A DNA stretch of 57,230 nt. Origin: a virus. Both the position numbers and the translations under genes were made by a program. The notes below the pieces were generated by a model. It was not told where the DNA came from. It saw only the letters and a list, made by a program, of their open reading frames with translations, and made no database searches. The DNA lies in the IMG/VR virus record IMGVR_UViG_3300026097_000027, positions 1 to 57,230 of that record, one strand, 5' to 3'. This document shows, in pieces, positions 3,921-54,846 of the stretch (its first letter is position 1; every line of letters starts with the position of its first letter).

Positions 3921-5071
3921 TATAAGTATCCTATATCTTTACTGCTAGAGCTGGTTAGGTTACCTGTAGCATATGCTCTTAGATCAAACTCTCGTAAATT
4001 TCGTCTGTTGTATATTGGCTTTAGAGTTACTGAAAGTCTACTCACAATCGGTACCCAAGTTGCTTCAACTTCTCCAGGTACTGAACACTTAATATAGTTT
4101 ACATCTTCTTCTAAGTTTAAATTAAAACTTGTTACTACAACAGGAACATTGTTAAACATGTTTGTTCCATAGCCGCTCAAATGGCAAATCACAGGAGGAT
4201 TTCCTACATTAGGTCCTTGTCCATAAAACATTTTTGTAGCAGTCTTGAAAAATGTTACTGCGCATAACCAATAATATGCGTCTTCATTGGTTTCTGCAGA
4301 GAACTCTCCACTGATTTGAATATCATCAATTTGACTGTTCTTATAAGCTAGAATGGGATAATTAGTATGTACTGGGTCGATTTGTGTGTAGTTTGCTCTT
4401 GATGAGAAAGTAATTTGAGGCGTATATGGAAAAACTACGCCGCCTGTAGTGGCTAGTTTTGTAAACATACCGCCATTAAATAAACTGAAATCTGTTTTAA
4501 TTCGAACACGCCAATCGTTTTTATTACTAGCCTTTAATACCAAAGGCTCATTGGGAACCTGAGCAAATACATCTGCTCCTTGAGGAATGTTGGCACCACG
4601 TCTGAGACTTAACAAGTTACCTGCTATACCTGCTGCTTTGCTAAACACCCCAGCTGTTTGGGAAATCCCCGATGCAACATCACCTAAACCGAATTTACTT
4701 GCAACTGCTTGTATATCTGCGGCAGTATTGGCGATAACTCCGGCAGCATCCGACGCTGTGGTTAAATTTTCTCCAACAGTTTTGGTGTTAGATACAGCAC
4801 TTGCAGTTTTTCCAAATGCAGTTTTGATGCCGTCAGGCGCATTTGGTTGTCCATCTGCATTTAAAAATCCTTCTAATCCGCCAAGAAGACCTGACGCGGT
4901 ATCTCCGGATATGAGTCCGCCGCTTTCGGCTTCAATATCTTTGCTGAGTTTTGCTTTGTCAATTGCGGCAAACTCTTGTGCCGCTGTAGCAATATCAATA
5001 TCGTACTGGGCATTTGCAGCTTGTATATCTGCAACAATTTTTGCCTGTGGGTTAGAGGGCAATCTTGGCAT
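3920..5071 (-). CDS. 48: Baseplate tail-tube cap protein, gp48-like
   Basis: This is a 383-aa protein. Residues 1-165 are Ala/Gly/Ser-rich and probably helical. Residues about 170-383 form the conserved part: LKASNKNDWRVRIKTDFSLF, GGVVFPYTPQITFSSRANYT, NYPILAYKNSQIDDIQISGE, YYWLCAVTFFKTATKMFYG and a C-terminal RPIYNRRNLREFDLR-like segment. This is a tail-tube-like fold shared by gp48/gp54 initiator proteins, which sit on the hub and start tube polymerisation. Assignment to gp48 rather than gp54 rests on memory of marine T4-like annotations and on its place next to gp53. It is the first gene of the minus-strand baseplate operon and is preceded by a late-type promoter (AATAAATA, minus strand) about 28 bp upstream of the ATG. 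Confidence 0.7.
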   Translation of the reverse strand: MPRLPSNPQAKIVADIQAANAQYDIDIATAAQEFAAIDKAKLSKDIEAESGGLISGDTASGLLGGLEGFLNADGQPNAPDGIKTAFGKTASAVSNTKTVGENLTTASDAAGVIANTAADIQAVASKFGLGDVASGISQTAGVFSKAAGIAGNLLSLRRGANIPQGADVFAQVPNEPLVLKASNKNDWRVRIKTDFSLFNGGMFTKLATTGGVVFPYTPQITFSSRANYTQIDPVHTNYPILAYKNSQIDDIQISGEFSAETNEDAYYWLCAVTFFKTATKMFYGQGPNVGNPPVICHLSGYGTNMFNNVPVVVTSFNLNLEEDVNYIKCSVPGEVEATWVPIVSRLSVTLKPIYNRRNLREFDLRAYATGNLTSSSSKDIGYL

Positions 5072-5098
5072 TTTGGTATCTTTATCCTATCTTTTATC

Positions 5099-5106
5099 TA
5101 TTTATT
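5099..5106 (-). promoter_or_regulatory. Late promoter for the baseplate operon
   Basis: The minus strand reads GCTGAATAAATAGATAAAAG here. AATAAATA matches the T4 late -10 element (TATAAATA) in seven of eight positions and lies about 28 bp before the gp48-like ATG. There is no -35 element, as expected for gp55-dependent promoters. Confidence 0.55.
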
Positions 5107-5121
5107 CAGCAAATAATATGC

Positions 5122-5127
5122 TACTAT
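5122..5127 (+). promoter_or_regulatory. Possible sigma70-type -10 for gp55
   Basis: TACTAT lies 24 bp before the gp55 start, the same hexamer as the -10 proposed for gp47. The -35 position 17 bp upstream reads TATTTA, which is a poor match. A weak early or middle promoter for the late sigma gene is plausible but not strongly supported. Confidence 0.3.
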
Positions 5128-5151
5128 ATTAATCAAGGAGTCCTTTACATA

Positions 5152-5997
5152 ATGACAAAAAGAGTAAAATATCTAAACAATCGAGACTTATTAAAAGAAA
5201 TACACAAAAGCAAAAACACATATTGCAGTTTTACGGAAAAAGAATACAATCAATATGATTTGATTGTTTCTGACCTTGATAAAATTCATGTGAGGACAAC
5301 AGCAGAAGCAAAACGCAATCAAGCTTCTAGAATGGCTAAGGCTGCCTATGAACAAGCCTGTGCCGTAGCAACTGGAAAGAAACCTACACAAAAAGAATTT
5401 GAAATTGATTATCGAAAAATTGCAAAAACAGATGTGGTATTTAGAGTAATGTCTTTTGAGCATATTCCGCTTGCACCTGGCAGGAAGAAAACTGTAAAAA
5501 CCACGGCAGACAAGCATGAGAAGGTAAATTTTCCTCCGTTTCAACATTGGAAGTTTGATGATAACGGAAATCTTATCTGTGTAGGAAAAAGTCATTGGAA
5601 AGGCGATATTCACACTGGTGAATTTTGCAAAGAACATGGAATGACCACAAACGAACTGGCTAAAATGTGGATGAAGCTCTGCGAACGCTATGCTACTCGT
5701 GGCAATGTCCGTGGATATACTTATAATGACGAAATGCGTGGGCAGGCTATTTTACAGTTAGCACAAATTGGTTTACAATTTGATGAAAGTAAATCAGATA
5801 ATCCGTTTGCATATTATACCGCGGCTGTTACAAACAGTTTTGTTAGAATTATCAATATTGAAAAGAAAAATCAAAACATTCGAGACGATATTTTAGAAAT
5901 GAACGGTATGAATCCTAGTTGGACTAGACAAAACGAAGGCAGGGACAACGGTCTTGTTCATGAACGAGGTACCGGAAAGGATACTGACTGGGATTGA
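5152..5997 (+). CDS. 55: RNA polymerase sigma factor for late transcription, gp55
   Basis: gp55 binds the host RNA polymerase core and directs it to late promoters; with sliding-clamp coactivation it switches on head and tail genes. This 281-aa protein has the family core around residues 125-250: PPFQHWKFDDNGNLICVGKS, HWKGDIHTGEFCKEHG, ERYATRGNVRGYTYNDEMRG, QAILQLAQIGLQFDESKSDN and PFAYYTAAVTNSFVRIINIE. The 'YTYNDEMRGQAILQL...FDESKSDNPFAYYT' block corresponds to sigma region 2. I chose ATG 5152 because AAGGAG lies at 5135-5140; a frame-compatible upstream ATG at 5065 has no ribosome site and overlaps the divergent gene. It is longer than T4 gp55 (185 aa), mostly by an N-terminal basic extension. 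It diverges from the baseplate operon. Confidence 0.9.
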   Translation: MTKRVKYLNNRDLLKEIHKSKNTYCSFTEKEYNQYDLIVSDLDKIHVRTTAEAKRNQASRMAKAAYEQACAVATGKKPTQKEFEIDYRKIAKTDVVFRVMSFEHIPLAPGRKKTVKTTADKHEKVNFPPFQHWKFDDNGNLICVGKSHWKGDIHTGEFCKEHGMTTNELAKMWMKLCERYATRGNVRGYTYNDEMRGQAILQLAQIGLQFDESKSDNPFAYYTAAVTNSFVRIINIEKKNQNIRDDILEMNGMNPSWTRQNEGRDNGLVHERGTGKDTDWD

Positions 5998-6039: not shown

Positions 6040-7050
6040 ATGGCACTATTTAAAAAGGCTGCTTGTTTCACCGACATCCATTTCGGTCTTAAAAGCGGAA
6101 GTAGAATTCACAACAACGATTGTGAAGAGTTTGTTAATTGGTTTTGTGCAGAAGCAGTGAAAGAAGGCTGCGATACATGCATCTTTTTAGGTGACTGGCA
6201 TCATAATAGAAACAGCACAGATGTTTCTACAATGAACTACACTCTAAGCAATCTAGAAACATTAAGCAAGACTTTTGAAAAGGTGTATTTTATCCTTGGC
6301 AATCACGACTTGTTTTATAAAGACAAGCGTGAGATTAACTCAGTAGAGTTTATGCGACTGTTTCCTAATGTTGTTCCTATTAGAGAGCCATTTACAGAAG
6401 GCGATGTTACTATTTTACCTTGGTTAGTAGGCGATGAATGGAAAAATATCAGTAAAATTACCAGTAAATATCTGTTCGGACATTTAGAATTACCCAGCTT
6501 TTATATGAATGCTATGGTACAGATGCCAGATCATGGCAACTTACAAAGCACACATTTTGTTAATCAAGATTATGTATTCAGCGGACACTTTCACAAGCGT
6601 CAGCAAAAAGGCAACATTGTGTACATGGGCAATGCATTTCCACACAACTATGCAGATGCATGGGACGATGAGCGTGGTATGATGATTTTAGAGTGGGACG
6701 GAACTCCTGAATATCGTTCTTGGCCTGATCAACCTCTATATCGCACATTTAAGTTGAGCGATTTAATTGATCGAGCTGATTCTGTGTTAACAAATAAAAT
6801 GTATTGTCGTGCAACTATTGATGTAAGTTTAAGTTTCGAAGAAGCAAACTTTATCAAAGAAGAATTTATTAAGACTTATGGATTAAGAGAACTTATTCTT
6901 ATTCCTGAAAAAGTAGAACTTGATTCTAACAGCACACCTATTGACTTAAATTTTGAAAGTGTAGACACTATTGTGTTAAATCAACTTACTCAAATTGAAA
7001 GCGAAGCCTACGACGGCAAATTGTTATTGGATATCTATAGAGAACTATGA
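6040..7050 (+). CDS. 47: Recombination endonuclease subunit gp47 (SbcD/Mre11-like)
   Basis: gp47 is the nuclease half of the gp46/gp47 complex. It resects double-strand ends for recombination-dependent replication and takes part in host DNA degradation. The 336-aa length fits T4 gp47 (339 aa). The calcineurin-like metallophosphoesterase motifs appear in order: DIHFG near residue 12, GDWHHNRN near 51, GNHDL near 88, GHLELP near 146 and GHFHKR near 183. All metal-binding Asp, Asn and His positions are therefore present. The gene is followed by gp46 with an ATGA-type overlap, so the two subunits are translationally coupled. A sigma70-like promoter lies just upstream. Confidence 0.95.
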   Translation: MALFKKAACFTDIHFGLKSGSRIHNNDCEEFVNWFCAEAVKEGCDTCIFLGDWHHNRNSTDVSTMNYTLSNLETLSKTFEKVYFILGNHDLFYKDKREINSVEFMRLFPNVVPIREPFTEGDVTILPWLVGDEWKNISKITSKYLFGHLELPSFYMNAMVQMPDHGNLQSTHFVNQDYVFSGHFHKRQQKGNIVYMGNAFPHNYADAWDDERGMMILEWDGTPEYRSWPDQPLYRTFKLSDLIDRADSVLTNKMYCRATIDVSLSFEEANFIKEEFIKTYGLRELILIPEKVELDSNSTPIDLNFESVDTIVLNQLTQIESEAYDGKLLLDIYREL

Positions 7051-8822
7051 TTAAAATTAAAAATCTCACAGTCCGCAACTTCATGAGTGTGGGCAATCAA
7101 ACACAGGCTATTGATTTTGACAAAGGTCAGCTTACTCTAGTACTAGGTGAAAACTTAGATCTTGGAGGAGATGCTGACGGTGCTCGTAACGGTACCGGTA
7201 AAACTACAATTGTAAATGGGTTAAGTTATGCTATCTACGGATCTGCACTCACAAACATTAAAAAAGACAATTTAATCAATAAAATAAACAGCAAACAGAT
7301 GTTAGTAACTTGCAGTTTTGAAAAAGATGGTGTAGAATATCATATCGAGCGTGGTCGCAGGCCTAATCTATTAAAATTTAAAGTTAACGGTCACGAACAA
7401 GAGACTAGCGATCACGACGAAGCACAGGGCGACAGTCGAGAAACACAAAAAGCCATTGAAGAAATTTTTGGCATGGGTCACGACATGTTCAAACACTTAG
7501 TTGCACTCAACACATATACCGATCCATTCTTAAGCATGCGTAGCAACGATCAACGAGCTATTATCGAACAATTGTTAGGTATTACGCAATTAAGTGAGAA
7601 GGCTGAGAAACTAAAAGAGAGTATTCGATTAACTAAAGACGAAATTAGTACAGAAACTGCAAAAATTGATGCAATCAAATCTAGTAATGACAGAATTTTA
7701 CAGAGTATTGAGAGTCTAGAACGCAAACAGCGTCTGTGGGAAGAAACTAAAAAGAAAAATATTAGTGATTTAGAAAAATCTATTGATGTTCTAAATCACA
7801 TTGATATCGATCAGGAGATTGAACTCCAAAGAGCTAAGGCGATATGGGTTGAAAGCAAGCGTGAGATTGATAATATACAGAGTTTGATTGCAAGACAGAC
7901 TGCAACCGTTGAAAAAGAGCAACGAGTTTTAGAAAAATTAGAAAAAGAACTGGTTACATTGCACGATCACAAATGTCATAGTTGCGGGCAGGATATTCAC
8001 GACGATCAACACGAAGAAATGTTAAGAAAAAAAGCTGATCAAGTCAACGAGTATCAAAAGTCTGTTGAAGAACACGGAAAAGAACTTACCGGCTTAGAAG
8101 AAGCAAGAACATTGTTAGGCGAGCTTGGCAATTGTCCTAGTGTACAATATGATAATTTAGAAGAAGCACTTAATCATAGAAATACTTTAGAAGGATTACA
8201 AAAAGATTTAGAATCTAAACGTGTAGATGAGAATCCTTATAATGATCAAATCGAAGAATTGAGAAATTCTGCAATACAAGAAATTAGTTGGGATATTATA
8301 AACGATTTAACTCGTGTTAAAGAACATCAAGAATTTTTATACAAGTTGCTTACAAACAAAGACAGCTTTATTCGTAAAAAGATTATTGATCAAAATTTAG
8401 CATTTTTAAATCAAAGATTAACATACTATTTGTCTAGTCTAGGACTACCGCATCTTGTAGAGTTCCAAAACGATTTAAGTGTTATTATTACACAACTAGG
8501 CCAGGATTTAGACTTCGATAACTTGAGTAGAGGTGAGCGTAATAGACTCATTTTGTCAATGAGCTTTGCTTTCCGCGATGTTTGGGAAAATTTATACCAA
8601 AGTATTAACTTATTGTTTATCGATGAGCTAGTTGATAGTGGCATGGATACCAGCGGTGTGGAAAATAGTATTCGTGTTCTTAAGAAAATGACTAGAGAAC
8701 GCGATAAAAATGTGTTTTTAATCAGTCACAAGGACGAACTAATTAGTAGAGTTAATCAAGTCCTTAAAGTTGTAAAAGAAAACGGCTTTACTTCATATAA
8801 TACGGATGTTGACATTATATGA
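7047..8822 (+). CDS. 46: Recombination endonuclease subunit gp46 (SbcC/Rad50-like)
   Basis: gp46 is the ATPase half of the resection complex with gp47. The 591-aa protein has an N-terminal ATPase half with Walker A GARNGTGKTT near residue 47. Long coiled coils (about residues 175-440) are interrupted by a Zn-hook CHSCG with cysteines at residues 310 and 313. The C-terminal half carries the ABC signature LSRGERNRL, Walker B LLFIDEL and the H-loop ISHKDEL. All catalytic elements are intact and the length is close to T4 gp46 (560 aa). Its ATG overlaps the gp47 stop, and its own stop overlaps the ATG of the next small gene. Confidence 0.95.
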   Translation: MIKIKNLTVRNFMSVGNQTQAIDFDKGQLTLVLGENLDLGGDADGARNGTGKTTIVNGLSYAIYGSALTNIKKDNLINKINSKQMLVTCSFEKDGVEYHIERGRRPNLLKFKVNGHEQETSDHDEAQGDSRETQKAIEEIFGMGHDMFKHLVALNTYTDPFLSMRSNDQRAIIEQLLGITQLSEKAEKLKESIRLTKDEISTETAKIDAIKSSNDRILQSIESLERKQRLWEETKKKNISDLEKSIDVLNHIDIDQEIELQRAKAIWVESKREIDNIQSLIARQTATVEKEQRVLEKLEKELVTLHDHKCHSCGQDIHDDQHEEMLRKKADQVNEYQKSVEEHGKELTGLEEARTLLGELGNCPSVQYDNLEEALNHRNTLEGLQKDLESKRVDENPYNDQIEELRNSAIQEISWDIINDLTRVKEHQEFLYKLLTNKDSFIRKKIIDQNLAFLNQRLTYYLSSLGLPHLVEFQNDLSVIITQLGQDLDFDNLSRGERNRLILSMSFAFRDVWENLYQSINLLFIDELVDSGMDTSGVENSIRVLKKMTRERDKNVFLISHKDELISRVNQVLKVVKENGFTSYNTDVDII

Positions 8823-9051: not shown

Positions 9052-9477
9052 ATGTCAGAGTGGACTTACAATGGTCAAATAGTACAAGAACTTCCTAAAG
9101 ATTGTGAAGGCTTTGTCTATTTGATCACAAATACTACTAATAATAAAAAATACATAGGCAAAAAACTAGCACGATTTAAAAAAACTAGACCACCACTTAA
9201 AGGCAGAAAAAATAAAAGGCGTAGCACAGTAGAAAGTGACTGGAGAGACTATTGGGGATCTTCAGATCATCTAAATGCTGATGTAAAGACACTAGGCCCA
9301 GACAAATTCACAAGAGAAATCCTTCATTTTTGTCCTAGCAGAGGCGTATTAAGTTATCTAGAGGCTAAAGAGCAATTCGACAGGCGTGTACTAGAAACGG
9401 ATGAATACTATAACGGTATTATCAATGTGCGTGTAGGCAGTTCAAACATTCTTAAAGAACATCTTAAAAAATTATAG
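9052..9477 (+). CDS. GIY-YIG family nuclease (Seg-like)
   Basis: The 141-aa protein contains GFVYLITNTTNNKKYIGKKL at residues 20-39, the two-strand GIY-YIG signature (here FVY...YIG). A basic segment follows (RPPLKGRKNKRR), then WRDYWGSS and a helix with a candidate catalytic Glu (SYLEAKEQFDRRVL). Freestanding GIY-YIG enzymes of T4-like phages (SegA-E) are homing or restriction-type endonucleases. No DNA-binding C-terminal domain is visible, so it may be a minimal nuclease. It starts 5 bp after the preceding gene and is the last gene of the gp47-46 operon. The amber stop at 9475-9477 is followed by 46 further open codons in the same frame (see 9478-9618). Confidence 0.75.
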   Translation: MSEWTYNGQIVQELPKDCEGFVYLITNTTNNKKYIGKKLARFKKTRPPLKGRKNKRRSTVESDWRDYWGSSDHLNADVKTLGPDKFTREILHFCPSRGVLSYLEAKEQFDRRVLETDEYYNGIINVRVGSSNILKEHLKKL

Positions 9478-9618
9478 GCAAAACACCGTCAATTAAGCCT
9501 CCACTGGCGCAGTTATAGTGGACTTGGACCTGGCACAAGTGCAGCACAGGGAATTGAATATTCGTTTGACGGCGGAGACTCGCATCACTACCAGATGATG
9601 ATGACTGGATATGCCTAA
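9478..9618 (+). pseudogene. In-frame open extension after the nuclease stop (gene remnant or readthrough tail)
   Basis: Directly after TAG the same frame stays open for 46 codons before TAA at 9616-9618. The encoded text looks like real protein, for example HWRSYSGLGPGTSAAQG, IEYSFDGGDSHHYQ and MMMTGYA. There is no ribosome binding site or good start codon in it. It could be the 3' end of a gene truncated by insertion of the nuclease gene, or a readthrough extension. I could not assign a family. Confidence 0.35.
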
Positions 9619-9836
9619 TTAACCAGTTTGATGCGTTTAGAACAATATTTTATAGGCTAAAGATGGGAACCAACCCAGGATTTGCACACAAGATAGCATT
9701 TGTTGTGTAGATTTGCCGTCAGACTTAAGAAACTTGGACGGGATGAGCAGGTACCGGCTGACCGCCTGCGTGATGTAGAGATACATTTAATCCTAATGCT
9801 ATTATGATTGTGCTACTCAGATAATAATCATTTTTT

Positions 9837-9859
9837 ACAAGCCCCGGCAACGGGCTTGT
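9837..9859 (+). terminator. Strong hairpin without U-tract, possible terminator
   Basis: A perfect 8-bp stem ACAAGCCC / GGGCTTGT encloses a 7-nt loop CGGCAAC. Six T residues precede it (9831-9836) but none follow on the plus strand, and the minus strand would have A residues after the stem. It is therefore not a classical intrinsic terminator on either strand, though its place between convergent operons suggests a transcript-end function. Confidence 0.4.
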
Positions 9860-9887
9860 TATGACCATACTATCTAGATAATCTTAA

Positions 9888-9902
9888 AACTGCTTCGCAG
9901 TT
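9888..9902. other. Small perfect hairpin AACTGC-TTC-GCAGTT
   Basis: A 6-bp perfect stem with a 3-nt TTC loop, 28 bp beyond the preceding hairpin and in the same convergent interval. Confidence 0.4.
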
Positions 9903-9954
9903 AATGTTAGTTCAATTAAAAGAAAGAAAATAGCGCGAGTGCTAACGAAGTGCT

Positions 9955-9971
9955 GGTGAGCTTTGCTCACC
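9955..9971 (-). terminator. Hairpin GGTGAGC-TTT-GCTCACC downstream of gp51-like gene
   Basis: A perfect 7-bp stem with a TTT loop lies 18 bp past the gp51-like stop. On the minus strand it is followed about 30 nt later by a T-rich run (TTTTCTTTCTTTT). The distance makes a classical terminator doubtful, but it is the best candidate end for the minus-strand gp26-gp51 transcript. Confidence 0.4.
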
Positions 9972-9989
9972 CTTAACTATTAGAAGTTA

Positions 9990-10268
9990 TTAGAAGAAAG
10001 GCAGTTGTGTCTTTTTAGTAGTTTCAAGATTCTCTTTGATTATTTCTGAAACAATCTCTCTTTCTTCATAACTAAGATTCATACCTTCTGAAAAGGAAAG
10101 ACCTCTCATGTACCAACACATTTTAAGAACTTCTTTCTTGATTCCCCTGGAATCTTTATCCATATTTTTTGCTATTGTTTGGATCTCTGGTTCAGGGAGT
10201 CTCAGGATCCTTTGGCGAAAAAATTTGATTGATCCATTGTGATAGGCATTGTAAAGTCTTCGTTGCAC
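9990..10268 (-). CDS. 51: gp51-like baseplate hub assembly protein
   Basis: The open frame encodes up to 92 aa from a GTG at 10268. The conserved C-terminal part is EVLKMCWYMRGLSFSEG, then SYEEREIVSEIIKENLETTK and a final LPFF. This ending is typical, as I recall it, of the small protein called gp51 (hub assembly catalyst) in marine T4-like phages. The true start is unclear. The GTG lies inside gp26 with no ribosome site. The first ATG (10163) would give 57 aa but drop protein-like sequence (LPEPEIQTIAKN). A CTG at 10205 overlaps the gp26 stop and sits just after AAAGGA. Coupling to gp26 is likely whichever start is used. Confidence 0.6.
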   Translation of the reverse strand: MQRRLYNAYHNGSIKFFRQRILRLPEPEIQTIAKNMDKDSRGIKKEVLKMCWYMRGLSFSEGMNLSYEEREIVSEIIKENLETTKKTQLPFF

Positions 10269-11053
10269 TCAGTACATTGAGCATCTACTGGCTTTAATTC
10301 ATTTATGGTTTTCATACTTCCGATATGATCACTGATAGTTTCAAACAAATCTTTCGGAGCATTATTTAAAAAATCTAAAATCATTGCTTGATCACTGACA
10401 TTGCCTTCCGGAGTTACAATGTAATCAATACAGCCAGCAATTACATCAACAGTAAGTTGTGTAAGTTTTACAAAACTGTCATTAAACAAATTGATTTTTT
10501 CTTCGTCTGATAGTTTTTCATCGTTAATTACAGCAAAAATTCTTTGTTGTTCAAATGTTTTTAGATTTGTTTTTGTAATTTCTTGATATGTGTACGGTCT
10601 AATATGAATCTGTAATGGATTATAATCAATAACAGATTTGTACTCGAGATTAGTGGCCTGTCCTAACCAGGTTGTTAGATTAATTGCATAGTTATTTTCT
10701 GCTTCACAGCTTGGACAGTTAGCGGTTACTTCCATTTCTTCGCCATATGTGGCAATTCGAATAGCAACTAACACAGCATCCAAATCTAAACTAGGCATAC
10801 TCCATGGATCTTTGATTGCAGGGATACAGCTCTTGATAACTTCCACAGTGCTCTGCCCACTCAGCAATGCATCAGGTGTTTTAAACAACAGTTCATCCTT
10901 TGCGGTCATAGCATATACAGCATATTCACCGTTTTCTGAACGATCTAATGCAGATTCTGGATAATAATTGCCATTAGATGGCAATTTAATATAAATTTTT
11001 GGTTGTCTAAAGTACTGTGCTAACGGATTTGCTGTTTTTTGCAGATCACTCAT
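10202..11053 (-). CDS. 26: Baseplate hub subunit gp26
   Basis: This 283-aa protein contains IYIKLPSNGNYYPE, YAVYAMTAKDELLFKTPDAL, LSGQSTVEVIKSCIPAIKDP, WSMPSLDLDAVLVAIRIATY and two Cys pairs (CPSCE near residue 130, CTECNE near 268) that look like a zinc ribbon. This is the gp26/T4-like baseplate hub family. ATG 11053 was chosen because GGAG sits 8 nt upstream; a TTG four codons earlier lies inside that Shine-Dalgarno region. The gene is first of a two-gene minus-strand unit with the gp51-like gene and has a perfect T4 late promoter box (TATAAATA) about 34 bp upstream. Confidence 0.82.
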   Translation of the reverse strand: MSDLQKTANPLAQYFRQPKIYIKLPSNGNYYPESALDRSENGEYAVYAMTAKDELLFKTPDALLSGQSTVEVIKSCIPAIKDPWSMPSLDLDAVLVAIRIATYGEEMEVTANCPSCEAENNYAINLTTWLGQATNLEYKSVIDYNPLQIHIRPYTYQEITKTNLKTFEQQRIFAVINDEKLSDEEKINLFNDSFVKLTQLTVDVIAGCIDYIVTPEGNVSDQAMILDFLNNAPKDLFETISDHIGSMKTINELKPVDAQCTECNEDFTMPITMDQSNFFAKGS

Positions 11054-11063
11054 TTTTATCTCC

Positions 11064-11071
11064 AATAAATA
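11064..11071 (+). promoter_or_regulatory. Late promoter for tape measure gene and head operon
   Basis: AATAAATA on the plus strand, 50 bp before ATG 11122. It lies within the leader of the divergent gp26 gene, so the two late promoters face away from each other with overlapping upstream DNA. Confidence 0.45.
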
Positions 11072-48657: not shown

Positions 48658-49323
48658 ATGACCGATGATACACATTGGGCATCGATTAGAGACTTTACCA
48701 ATCTTAGATTTATTGAATCTCGAATGCCTGTAGAATTACAAAATATTTTAAATTTAGAAATAGATAAACTTTCTAAGGACTCTGAACCCTACAACCATAG
48801 ACTACAAGGACATATTAAGGAAGAGTATTCTTTGGATCATGTAAAGAATTATTTTCAAAATTGGTTATTATCTATAGCGAAATCTTGGACCGAATCTAAT
48901 CCGGGGCATTTGGATGAGTTTGAAGAAGTATCTAAATGCAACTCGTATAATTTATATCTAGATAGTTTATGGGTCAACAAACAAAAAAAACACGAGTTTA
49001 ATCCTATACATCATCATTCAGGGGCGTTAAGCTTTGTTATATGGCTTAAAATACCTTATAACTTAGAAGACGAAGTAAATTATTTTCCGTTAATCTCAGG
49101 GACCAGTGATAATCATAAAGATAATTTTTATACATCTAAATTTTGTTTTGTATATAATGACGTACTAGGAAAAATAAAAAACCTGGCTGTACCTGTTGAT
49201 AAGACTTTTGAAGGAACTATACTTATGTTTCCGGCTAGTCTTCAGCACATCGTATATCCGTTTTATACATCAGACGACTATAGAATAAGTGTGTCAGGTA
49301 ACATTAGAATAGACCCGACGTGA
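48658..49323 (+). CDS. 2OG-Fe(II) oxygenase-like protein 4
   Basis: This 221-aa protein has motif HEFNPIHHHSGALSFVIWLK near residue 114, distal His in ASLQHIVYPFYTSDDYR near 197, and Arg with YRISVSGNIRI near 207. The double-His ligand 'NPIHHHSGxLSFVIW' is clear. The middle has an insertion (residues 130-180) absent from the others. It is the last oxygenase of the plus-strand series and is followed by the HAD phosphatase gene. Confidence 0.72.
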   Translation: MTDDTHWASIRDFTNLRFIESRMPVELQNILNLEIDKLSKDSEPYNHRLQGHIKEEYSLDHVKNYFQNWLLSIAKSWTESNPGHLDEFEEVSKCNSYNLYLDSLWVNKQKKHEFNPIHHHSGALSFVIWLKIPYNLEDEVNYFPLISGTSDNHKDNFYTSKFCFVYNDVLGKIKNLAVPVDKTFEGTILMFPASLQHIVYPFYTSDDYRISVSGNIRIDPT

Positions 49324-52809: not shown

Positions 52810-54846
52810 ATGTCGGAAAAATTTTACCAATTAGGAACGCATACCACCGAAGAGTGGATTGAACTACATCAAGAGTTGATAAATGATGGAAATCAATACG
52901 AAGCAGTTCCGACAAGAGCAGTCCGAGTTGAGGATGATAAGCCTCATAGTCCTACAAGAGGTACTTATTTACTTACTGAAGATGAAGCCAACGAATTAAA
53001 ACAAGATTCTAGAGTAAAATTTATTAATATAGACTATTCTAAATATCCGGAAGAGTTTGCTCCTCCACCAAAAGAACTTCAAATGACAGCTCCTCCTCTA
53101 CTATCTAGATATTCTGGATCTATAAAGAATTATAGAGAATTTGAAACATCAGATACTCTTCCAGGAAGTCCAGATGCTACAGATTCAAATAGAACTGGAT
53201 ATCAATTAACACGCTGCCAACAATTTTTAGATCCTTGGGTAGATGGATCTTTAGCTGACAGTGCTGTAGTTAACACCAATATACAACAATACGGTACAGG
53301 AAAGAATGTAGATGTTGTAGTAGCAGACGAAGGAATGTGGATAGGACATCCAGAATTTCAAAACAATTGTGTTCTTTCATCAGATAGTCAAACAAGTGTG
53401 GAAAATCCAAATGGTTACACCGGAGGAAACTTACTTCCGGGCAATGGTACTTGTGATGTGTTAGATTTGGTATTAGATTCACCTTACTATATTGACCCAG
53501 AGTGGTTCGACGCTGATCCAGACAATAGATTAACAACTCGTTGGGATAGTACTCGAGTCCCAGTTGAAAGCGTAGCAAGAACATGGTGGAGTAATGCTAG
53601 TCAGAGAAGCAGTAAGTTTGCCGATGCTGGTACTGTTATTATTAGCAGTAACTATACAAGATTAAATACCAGCGGAGATAATACCCAACAACCAATTACC
53701 ATTGGACCGATATCTGAAGGTGAGCACGGAACACCTTGCGGTGCTCTTACATTTGGTAGAACACAAGGCTGGGCTTATAATGCCAATAAATGGACATTAG
53801 ATTTATATGGAAGTTATGGCAGTGGAATCGAACAAGGATTCGATTTAACAAAACTATTTCATCAACTAAAACCAGTAAACTCAGAGTATAACACAAAAGA
53901 TCCTACAATAATGTCTAACAGCTGGGGATATAGAGCTAACAAAGATCCAGGCGGTAGTACATATTATTATACTCATCGTGCATCTGCTAATAACTCGTAT
54001 ACTTCTGAACCGTTGTTTATTTCTCATATGGGCACACAAGGAGACACTGGTCGTTGGAAGTCAGAAATGAAAACTAACTCACTAACTACTGCCCAAGACG
54101 AGCTTATCGACAGCGGAGTTATTTTTGTAGTTGCTTCAGGAAACAGCAACCAAAAACAAGTACAATCAGATCATCCAGATTATGATAATTATATTACAGA
54201 CACAGATGGCGGGAGTTTAGCAGATTCTAACTTCACTGAGTTTGGTGTAAATGTATTTGGGACTACAAATCGAAGAGGATTCCCTCAACAAGGCGGAATG
54301 TATACCGACGAGAACGGATTAATACAATATAAAACTATTAACATAGGTGCATTAGATGATGATTTTAACACAGGATTAGAATCTAAAGTAAGCTATAGTG
54401 ATAGAGGAAACGGTATAGATCTATATGCTCCTGCTGATGGAACACTAGCGGCAAACAAAACTTATACTAATGAAGGCCCAAGGCCAGATACATATAATGG
54501 ATTAACATTTAATGGTGGCACAGCACACGACTGTGCGTTTGGCGGAACAAGTGCCGCCTGTCCAGTAGCTTGCGGACTGCTTGCTACCGTGTTAGAACAT
54601 AACAGAGATTGGACTTGGAGAGAAATGTTAGAATGGTTGGAATCTTTGCAAAATCAGGATGCCAGTGACTTTTATTACGGCGTAGAATCAACAACTCCTA
54701 CTGACGCAAATTGGGAAGATTACGAAAGTTTAGAAGGCGGCCCAGCAAAGGTTATATACCAGGCAAATATAGATCAGAGATTCATACCAGGGGAAAGAAA
54801 AGTTTTTTCTAACCTGCGTGTCAGCGGATTGCGATTTAAAAAATAA
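52810..54846 (+). CDS. Subtilisin-family (S8) serine protease in the fibre region
   Basis: In this 678-aa protein the catalytic triad motifs are in the correct order: VDVVVADEGMWIGHPEF (Asp173), GEHGTPCGAL (His306), the oxyanion Asn in VASGNSNQKQ (Asn445) and FGGTSAACPVACGLLATVLE (Ser581). The N-terminal 110 residues (TEEWIELHQELINDGNQYEA) resemble a propeptide/I9-like inhibitor domain. There is no signal peptide, so it is made in the cytoplasm or packed in the virion. A large insertion (residues 190-300) separates Asp and His. It lies between two fibre genes, within the unit served by the late promoter at 51571. It may process fibres, cut host surface proteins, or be a structural relative; all triad residues are present, so activity is likely. 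Confidence 0.85.
   Translation: MSEKFYQLGTHTTEEWIELHQELINDGNQYEAVPTRAVRVEDDKPHSPTRGTYLLTEDEANELKQDSRVKFINIDYSKYPEEFAPPPKELQMTAPPLLSRYSGSIKNYREFETSDTLPGSPDATDSNRTGYQLTRCQQFLDPWVDGSLADSAVVNTNIQQYGTGKNVDVVVADEGMWIGHPEFQNNCVLSSDSQTSVENPNGYTGGNLLPGNGTCDVLDLVLDSPYYIDPEWFDADPDNRLTTRWDSTRVPVESVARTWWSNASQRSSKFADAGTVIISSNYTRLNTSGDNTQQPITIGPISEGEHGTPCGALTFGRTQGWAYNANKWTLDLYGSYGSGIEQGFDLTKLFHQLKPVNSEYNTKDPTIMSNSWGYRANKDPGGSTYYYTHRASANNSYTSEPLFISHMGTQGDTGRWKSEMKTNSLTTAQDELIDSGVIFVVASGNSNQKQVQSDHPDYDNYITDTDGGSLADSNFTEFGVNVFGTTNRRGFPQQGGMYTDENGLIQYKTINIGALDDDFNTGLESKVSYSDRGNGIDLYAPADGTLAANKTYTNEGPRPDTYNGLTFNGGTAHDCAFGGTSAACPVACGLLATVLEHNRDWTWREMLEWLESLQNQDASDFYYGVESTTPTDANWEDYESLEGGPAKVIYQANIDQRFIPGERKVFSNLRVSGLRFKK

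What the first reader, a model, noticed from the sequence alone, without database searches (positions are those of the whole stretch)
9619..9989. Structured non-coding interval between convergent operons
About 370 bp carry three strong perfect hairpins (9837-9859, 9888-9902, 9955-9971) and several weaker stems, with no start codon plus ribosome site. None of the strong hairpins is followed directly by a T-run, so simple termination does not explain them. A stable small RNA or an RNA-processing hub is possible.
Basis: partly seen in the sequence, partly recalled or inferred. Interest (0 to 1): 0.55.

Follow-up and report, generated by a model that had tools for sequence, protein, structure and literature searches.

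The report
Large phage RNA with twin motifs
The interval is the back two-thirds of a roughly 420-base folded non-coding RNA that a group of uncultured T4-like phages carries in the same place, of which only the front third was known, and it holds two short copies of one motif that change together.

Summary
The hairpins are real, but the interval is only part of the feature. Rfam's orphan family RF01718 (Polynucleobacter-1, 141 nt) matches window 9496-9638 just upstream (94.8 bits, cut-off 37). Relatives show one conserved RNA continuing to 9902 (~420 nt), followed in many of them by a terminator-like hairpin. In the finding's own stretch, 48 proposed pairs across 58 diverse sequences are 89.5% paired (39-44% when slid), with 391 two-sided compensatory cells (119 in shuffles), including two pseudoknots. 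The RNA lies downstream of a GIY-YIG nuclease gene, after gp55-gp47-gp46; 57 of 57 gp46-anchored loci with enough sequence carry it. Nine cultured phages searched whole gave no match. New here is a 24-nt repeat pair (9802-9825, 9859-9882) whose cores change in unison: 151 of 151 distinct sequences with both copies complete agree at three variable positions, although neighbouring bases differ between the copies, through about 15 inferred switches. No convincing Watson-Crick partner was found in the RNA or nearby. Best reading: a trans-acting RNA that docks one co-evolving partner twice; the partner is unknown. It is a known orphan family, greatly extended, with an unusual coupling.

The parts
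9483..9902 (+). Whole conserved structured non-coding RNA (about 420 nt)
   Evidence: Alignment of 9 sequences and of 22 distinct ones; iterated profile finds 205 loci, 139 full-length rows, then 273 of 380 loci held, which are 198 distinct RNA sequences
9496..9638 (+). 5' domain = Rfam RF01718 (Polynucleobacter-1)
   Evidence: 94.8 bits, gathering score 37, E 3.8e-19
9501..9521 (+). Helix 9501-9505/9517-9521
   Evidence: Covarying helix
9584..9632 (+). Helix 9584-9587/9629-9632 enclosing 9603-9608/9623-9628
   Evidence: Covarying helices
9682..9710 (+). Long hairpin 9682-9692/9699-9710
   Evidence: Strongest helix; all 10 named pairs have two-sided changes but only 78.9% of cells pair, two pairs near the bulge fitting badly in that register; RNAalifold places it with a better register
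9693..9802 (+). Pseudoknot 1: 9693-9699 with 9796-9802 (UAGCAUU/AAUGCUA)
   Evidence: 96.3% of cells paired, 7 of 7 pairs with two-sided changes; also and a perfect inverted repeat. RNAalifold, which cannot draw pseudoknots, pairs part of the 3' strand elsewhere, without two-sided changes
9718..9762 (+). Pseudoknot 2: 9718-9722 with 9758-9762, the latter in the loop of hairpin 9747-9751/9765-9769
   Evidence: 99.0% of cells paired, 3 of 5 pairs with two-sided changes
9741..9793 (+). Helix 9741-9743/9791-9793
   Evidence: 100% of cells paired, 3 of 3 pairs with two-sided changes
9802..9825 (+). Repeat copy 1 (core CUC-AG-AUAAU, 9816-9825)
   Evidence: 24-nt direct repeat, 71% identity, spacing 57; same-base coupling with copy 2
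9837..9859 (+).
   Evidence: Perfect 8-bp arms; covarying helix, 86-90% of cells paired
9859..9882 (+). Repeat copy 2 (core UCU-AG-AUAAU, 9873-9882)
9888..9902 (+).
   Evidence: 98.4% of cells paired, one of six pairs with two-sided changes; that pair, 9890-9900, is the top signal
9955..9971 (+).
   Evidence: Alignment; terminator-like in 25 of 59 representatives; no T-run in this window
9052..9477 (+). GIY-YIG nuclease gene upstream of the RNA
   Evidence: PHROG homing endonuclease matches and phrog_447; upstream on the same strand in 248 of 248 loci with at least 450 nt upstream
7047..8822 (+). gp46-like (SbcC-like) gene that anchors the synteny
   Evidence: PHROG match; found upstream in 167 of 205 RNA loci, many of the other 38 having little upstream sequence

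Best explanation
Shown: an about 420-nt structured non-coding RNA with constant gene neighbours, made of the RF01718 domain (5'), a double-pseudoknot middle domain, and a 3' module with two copies of a short motif flanking a hairpin; it follows the gp55-gp47-gp46-GIY-YIG genes, and in many relatives a terminator-like hairpin follows it. Inferred: it is made by read-through from that operon or from an unmapped promoter, ends at that hairpin, and works in trans. The two motif copies act as two docking sites for one and the same partner, whose specificity changes over evolution, so that both sites must change together. The partner is either a protein that binds twice (a dimer) or a nucleic acid that pairs with either copy. 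I lean slightly to pairing (about 55:45), because the fixed base differences between the two copies inside or next to the coupled core (C/U, U/C, C/U in one set, G/A in the other) are transitions that one partner base could tolerate by G-U wobble.
For: Rfam hit. Conservation runs far past Rfam's 141 nt. Covariation with two pseudoknots. Constant position: 57 of 57 gp46-anchored loci with enough sequence. One copy in each of 15 large phage records of 102-353 kb. RNA identity exceeds gp46 identity in 432 and GIY-YIG identity in 340 of 494 pairs of loci. Same-base coupling: X, Y and z agree in 151 of 151 distinct sequences with both motifs complete and w in 150, while the preceding bases are CUC against UCU (first two differ in 151, third in 148); 15 parsimony changes of XY on an RNA tree of 126 rows built without the motifs. 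Among the seven strongest associates of each coupled base, the twin position scores 76 (X) and 75 (Y); pair-compatible columns are far weaker. No type-specific complement is enriched from -2.5 to +1.5 kb (54 own against 67 decoy).
Against: No transcript data. The partner is unknown; the GIY-YIG protein shows no more association with motif type than gp46 or gp47. Invariant A, U and A bases inside the coupled core are not what simple base pairing predicts. Some columns are weakly pair-compatible with the coupled bases: 9811 with X (score 15.6, 78%), 9788 with X (score 10.3; 75 of 153 rows have a gap only there) and 9855 with Y (26.9, 69%); I read them as descent. The count of switches rests on one tree of a short RNA, and one switch (L227) looks like replacement of the whole 3' module, so switches are not all point changes. 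In the most diverged pairs the RNA is not more conserved than the genes.
Confidence: 0.55

Rival explanations
1. A cis-acting 3' UTR element: the fold only ends and protects the gp46-GIY-YIG transcript, or regulates the next gene downstream, as the 2010 authors guessed for RF01718 (cis-regulatory 'y').
For: In the window it starts 6 nt after the GIY-YIG stop codon, and a terminator-like hairpin follows in 25 of 59 representatives. Weinberg et al. marked it cis-regulatory 'y', switch '?' (table passage).
Against: A 420-nt double-pseudoknot RNA with a coupled motif pair is more than termination needs (inference). In this window no + strand gene follows before the convergent gene; in the 49 representatives scored the first ORF of at least 70 aa downstream is on the RNA's strand in 33 and on the other in 16, so it is not a constant leader.
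Confidence: 0.2
2. The two copies are equal because of recombination (gene conversion) between neighbouring repeats, not because of a shared partner.
For: The copies start 57 nt apart; module replacement seems to occur (L227).
Against: A conversion tract would have to stop at the same place every time: the bases next to the coupled core stay CUC against UCU (first two bases in 151 of 151, third in 148), and the outer flanks differ. In the diverged set the copies share the core but keep G against A in 43 of 43 rows.
Confidence: 0.1
3. The repeats are two tiny reading frames ending in the same codon and stop (for example AUG ... AGA UAA).
For: In the window both copies can be read as 6-codon frames before UAA, the variable triplet precedes UAA or UGA, and z is always A or G.
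Against: The spacing between the possible start and the stop changes by single bases between relatives in both copies.
Confidence: 0.03
4. An RNA paired functionally with the GIY-YIG nuclease (a nuclease-RNA unit).
For: GIY-YIG upstream in 248 of 248 RNA loci with enough sequence.
Against: The gene occurs without the RNA: 20 of 66 GIY-YIG loci with at least 700 nt downstream had no profile hit; 16 of these 20 show no gp46 directly upstream, and the other 4 (L059, L060, L070, L089) seem to hold a diverged RNA. Motif type is not associated with GIY-YIG residues beyond controls. The shared position may be simple common descent.
Confidence: 0.12

Closest known systems
Rfam RF01718, Polynucleobacter-1 RNA (Weinberg et al. 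2010, PMC2864571)
   Same: The 5' third (9496-9638) matches the whole 141-position model well above the cut-off.
   Different: The model stops at 141 nt; here the RNA continues for about 264 nt with two pseudoknots and the coupled motif pair. The paper's table lists Burkholderiales and fresh water/estuary; every carrier found here is a viral contig. I found no function assigned to it.
Large ornate RNAs GOLLD, ROOL, OLE (PMC12286853, abstract and outline seen)
   Same: Large, elaborately folded RNAs of unsettled role; some are phage-linked (recalled).
   Different: Only RF01718 reached a cut-off in the window; this RNA is smaller (their sizes recalled).
Bridge RNA of IS110-family elements (recalled)
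   Same: Two places in one RNA that must carry the same short core.
   Different: No recombinase among the ten neighbouring proteins scanned, and the locus keeps its place among the same genes.

Membership tests
Rfam RF01718 (Polynucleobacter-1) | Covariance-model score at or above the gathering cut-off over the whole model | tested here: met
   94.8 against 37 bits, model 1-141
Rfam RF01718 (Polynucleobacter-1) | Same match in the relatives | tested here: met
   8 of 9 loci, 13 of 20, 15 of 15 large phage records; the 7 without a match are diverged or truncated rows of the profile search
Rfam RF01718 (Polynucleobacter-1) | Occurs in a Burkholderiales genome | not testable with these tools
   Stated in PMC2864571; the one genome-contig scan, with a pattern from the 3' end, gave 6 hits in other groups, none matching the RNA profile
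Rfam RF01718 (Polynucleobacter-1) | Cis-regulatory position upstream of a gene (authors' guess 'y') | tested here: inconclusive
   Not so in the window; first downstream ORF on the same strand in 33 of 49 representatives scored
Bridge RNA (IS110) | Adjacent recombinase gene | tested here: not met
   Ten neighbouring proteins scanned against PHROGs: none named so
Bridge RNA (IS110) | Two loops sharing a core | tested here: inconclusive
   Shared core shown, but loops and DNA targets are not
GOLLD / ROOL / OLE | Match to the Rfam family | tested here: not met
   Only RF01718 reached a cut-off in the window
tRNA / tmRNA | ARAGORN model | tested here: not met
   0 genes in the window

The most novel reading that the evidence does not exclude
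The 3' module is a re-targetable two-site guide or sponge: both copies pair with the same trans sequence (phage or host RNA, or DNA), and the phages change target by changing both copies at once or by swapping the module as a cassette. That would be an RNA class recognised by same-base rather than Watson-Crick covariation.
Probability: 0.2. Interest if true: 0.85.

Novelty: new variant of a known kind. Interest (0 to 1): 0.62.

Why it matters
An orphan Rfam family, named in one paper in the library searched, turns out to be the front third of a larger RNA present in 57 of 57 informative gp46-anchored loci of a phage group. That gives the family a phage setting, a fuller structure to test, and a handle on function: two sites whose bases move in lockstep should see the same partner. 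Covariation methods that look for complementary changes would treat this signal as a non-pair.

Tried and rejected
Mini-ORFs in the repeats: rejected, frame not kept. Cis Watson-Crick partner for the coupled bases: no strong one among the seven strongest associates listed per position (weak candidates are named under evidence against, with counts), and no enriched complement from -2.5 to +1.5 kb (54 own against 67 decoy). Extra motif copies elsewhere in the window: the copy 1 pattern is at chance level (3 matches, expected 1.86); the copy 2 pattern has 8 matches with one mismatch allowed against 2.23 expected, 0 of 100 shuffles as high, two of them overlapping palindromes; not followed up. Common complement ATTATCTGGGT, up to two mismatches: 24 matches against 19.2 expected. 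GIY-YIG protein as co-evolving partner: no excess over gp46/gp47. RNA in cultured phages: regions of 9 phages by profile and by Rfam, and their 9 whole records by RF01718: none; that tool warns that a search in which nothing rings does not show absence, and RF01718 covers the 5' domain only. DNA similarity to the phages collection: no match. Bacterial genomes: 6 pattern hits; none matches the whole-RNA profile at E 1e-5, though with the 3' sub-model they score E 0.0009 to 0.17 (they were picked by a pattern from that region). Diverged loci L070 (0.00025) and L089 (0.0069) score in or near that range and L059 better (3.1e-6), so L070 and L089 rest on gene order and the twin motif rather than on sequence score. 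Late-promoter mimicry (6S-like decoy): intergenic regions of the window show TATAAATA-like sites, read by eye; not pursued.

Rows left out: alignment A1 uses 58 of the 63 representatives (L064, L002, L247, L189 and L009 dropped for large insertions). Covariation used 153 of 163 distinct rows. The coupling count used 151 of 163 (both motifs complete); one row of the 153 has U at X and is not among the 151. The tree has 126 rows. In one search, 227 rows: 223 have an upstream copy with the same XY, 4 are cut by locus ends (L097, L124, L140, L125). In one search three of 43 rows look mis-registered by the script (an upstream TGATGA was taken; the true copies are visible by eye for L385, L439, L457), which gives the 40 of 43 figures; the agreement counted for those three rows at the other positions is therefore accidental in the script, though it also holds by eye. 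One search sampled 500 pairs and kept 494; its bins are set by RNA identity, which favours the RNA in high bins. Loci overlap: 273 loci with the RNA are 198 distinct RNA sequences, and L001 is the window itself.

Short of information: 36 of 59 gp26-anchored loci of at least 6500 bases showed no RNA, but their 3-kb flank often ends before the RNA's place. 'Not in print' rests in an open-access library only. PMC8632094 (passages seen) names other RNA motifs of Polynucleobacter, not this one.

Full report
What was checked. Energy alone does not make the interval special (z -1.44); the longer stretch 9483-9989 does better (z -2.70). The minus strand scores z -2.50, so energy does not choose the strand.

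What it is. Rfam matches RF01718 (Polynucleobacter-1) at 9496-9638 on the + strand with 94.8 bits (cut-off 37). A 19-position pattern from that region found nine viral contigs, eight with the Rfam match. Their alignment with the window shows conservation running on to 9902, through most of the finding's interval.

Structure. A G-test with average-product correction on 153 distinct rows (effective number 69) put base pairs of the proposed helices among its top signals; a helix search gave the set in the parts table. On a separate MAFFT alignment of 58 of 63 representatives over 9655-9902, 48 named pairs are 89.5% standard (shuffled 75.6%; slid 38.7-43.8%), 33 pairs have two-sided changes, and 391 cells are two-sided (shuffled 119, sd 10.4), with 0 of 500 shuffles as high on any of the five measures. 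Pseudoknot 1 pairs 9693-9699 with 9796-9802 (96.3%), pseudoknot 2 pairs 9718-9722 with 9758-9762 (99.0%). Limits: the structure was drawn partly from the same sequences, so the slid control is biased in its favour; the shuffle control does not keep relatedness; the first helix counted (9664-9667/9674-9677) is weak in this register (64.6%) and two pairs of the long hairpin fit badly. RNAalifold, given no structure, finds the long hairpin, the helix 9741-9743/9791-9793, the 9747-9769 hairpin and both 3' hairpins (35 pairs, 22 with two-sided changes); it cannot draw the pseudoknots and instead pairs columns 2-4 with 171-173, which overlap the 3' strand of pseudoknot 1, with no two-sided change.

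Where it lies. PHROG matches name the late sigma factor (5065-5997), SbcD- and SbcC-like subunits (6040-7050, 7047-8822), homing-endonuclease relatives for 9052-9477, and a baseplate hub (10202-11065): a T4-like set. In 248 of 248 RNA loci with at least 450 nt upstream the GIY-YIG gene is upstream on the same strand. The gp46-anchored sample was not chosen for the RNA: 57 of 57 loci with at least 1300 nt downstream carry both. Each of 15 phage records of 102-353 kb has one copy. Nine cultured phages, including Melnitz, PA5oct, RaK2, Atu_ph07 and Phosso, gave no match. Among 494 random pairs of loci, RNA identity exceeds gp46 identity in 432 and GIY-YIG identity in 340 (sums over the bins); in the most diverged bin (RNA 60-70%) it does so in only 32 and 29 of 67. 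RNA core lengths range from 360 to 464 and spread about evenly modulo 3.

The twin motif. The window holds a 24-nt direct repeat, 9802-9825 and 9859-9882, 71% identical, 57 nt apart, around a hairpin. In the covariation test the third to fifth highest scores are not base pairs but the same position in the two copies: 9819-9876 (A/A or G/G), 9820-9877 (G/G, C/C or A/A), 9823-9880 (A/A or G/G). In 151 distinct sequences with both copies complete, X, Y and z agree in 151 and w in 150, although the first two preceding bases differ in 151 and the third in 148 (CUC against UCU). Types seen are AG, GC, GG, AC and GA. On a tree of the rest of the RNA the XY type changes 15 times by parsimony, against 56 on average for shuffled labels, so it is inherited yet switches. 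L227 (GC) against five AG relatives: 95-97% identity before the 3' module, 85-88% within it, while the GIY-YIG genes are 70-72% identical; its 3' module resembles that of other GC types (by eye). A second, strongly diverged set (L060, L070, L089 and the 85 contigs; gene order checked for those three only) has its own twin motif: the base before UGAU is G/G, U/U or A/A in 43 of 43 rows, the base three before agrees in 43 of 43, the base two before in 40 of 43 (three rows mis-registered by the script), and the base after UGAU is G in copy 1 and A in copy 2 in 43 of 43.

Reading. Same-base coupling means the copies are not paired to each other; the simplest account is that both must satisfy one partner. 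No convincing partner was found in the RNA or nearby, and the GIY-YIG protein is not specially associated. Hence a trans partner bound twice. Fixed differences between copies at the coupled core (C/U, U/C, C/U; G/A) are transitions, compatible with one partner base by wobble; this is an inference and only a mild lean to pairing.

Known or new. The 5' domain is a known orphan family. In the library searched only PMC2864571 holds its name or accession; there it is a table row: RNA 'y', cis-regulatory 'y', switch '?', Burkholderiales, fresh water/estuary (passages seen). The extension, pseudoknots, phage setting and coupled motifs were not found in print in that library.

Noticed in passing
L060, L070, L089, L380-L459 and further loci: A second, highly diverged RNA set with its own twin motif that also changes in unison; gp46-GIY-YIG setting seen for L060, L070 and L089. 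No Rfam family matches L060, L070 or L089.
   Followed up: partly
window 9052-9477: The GIY-YIG gene's best PHROG (phrog_447) and many phage records call it 'NAD synthetase', while other matches and domain notes say homing endonuclease; probably a label passed on in error.
   Followed up: no
L025, L029, L033, L049, L080, downstream of the GIY-YIG gene: A different conserved non-coding-looking stretch (GAGAGAGGTTTAGAGGAGACA...) shared by GIY-YIG loci without the RNA; no Rfam match.
   Followed up: partly
window 9990-10268 and 10202-11065, - strand: A small ORF without a PHROG match overlaps the baseplate-hub gene; it accompanies that gene in the gp26-bearing loci listed.
   Followed up: no
window 48956-48966, 53100-53113 and others: ATCTAGATAAT-like sites with one mismatch are more frequent than in shuffles (8 against 2.23), possibly palindrome effects.
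   Followed up: no
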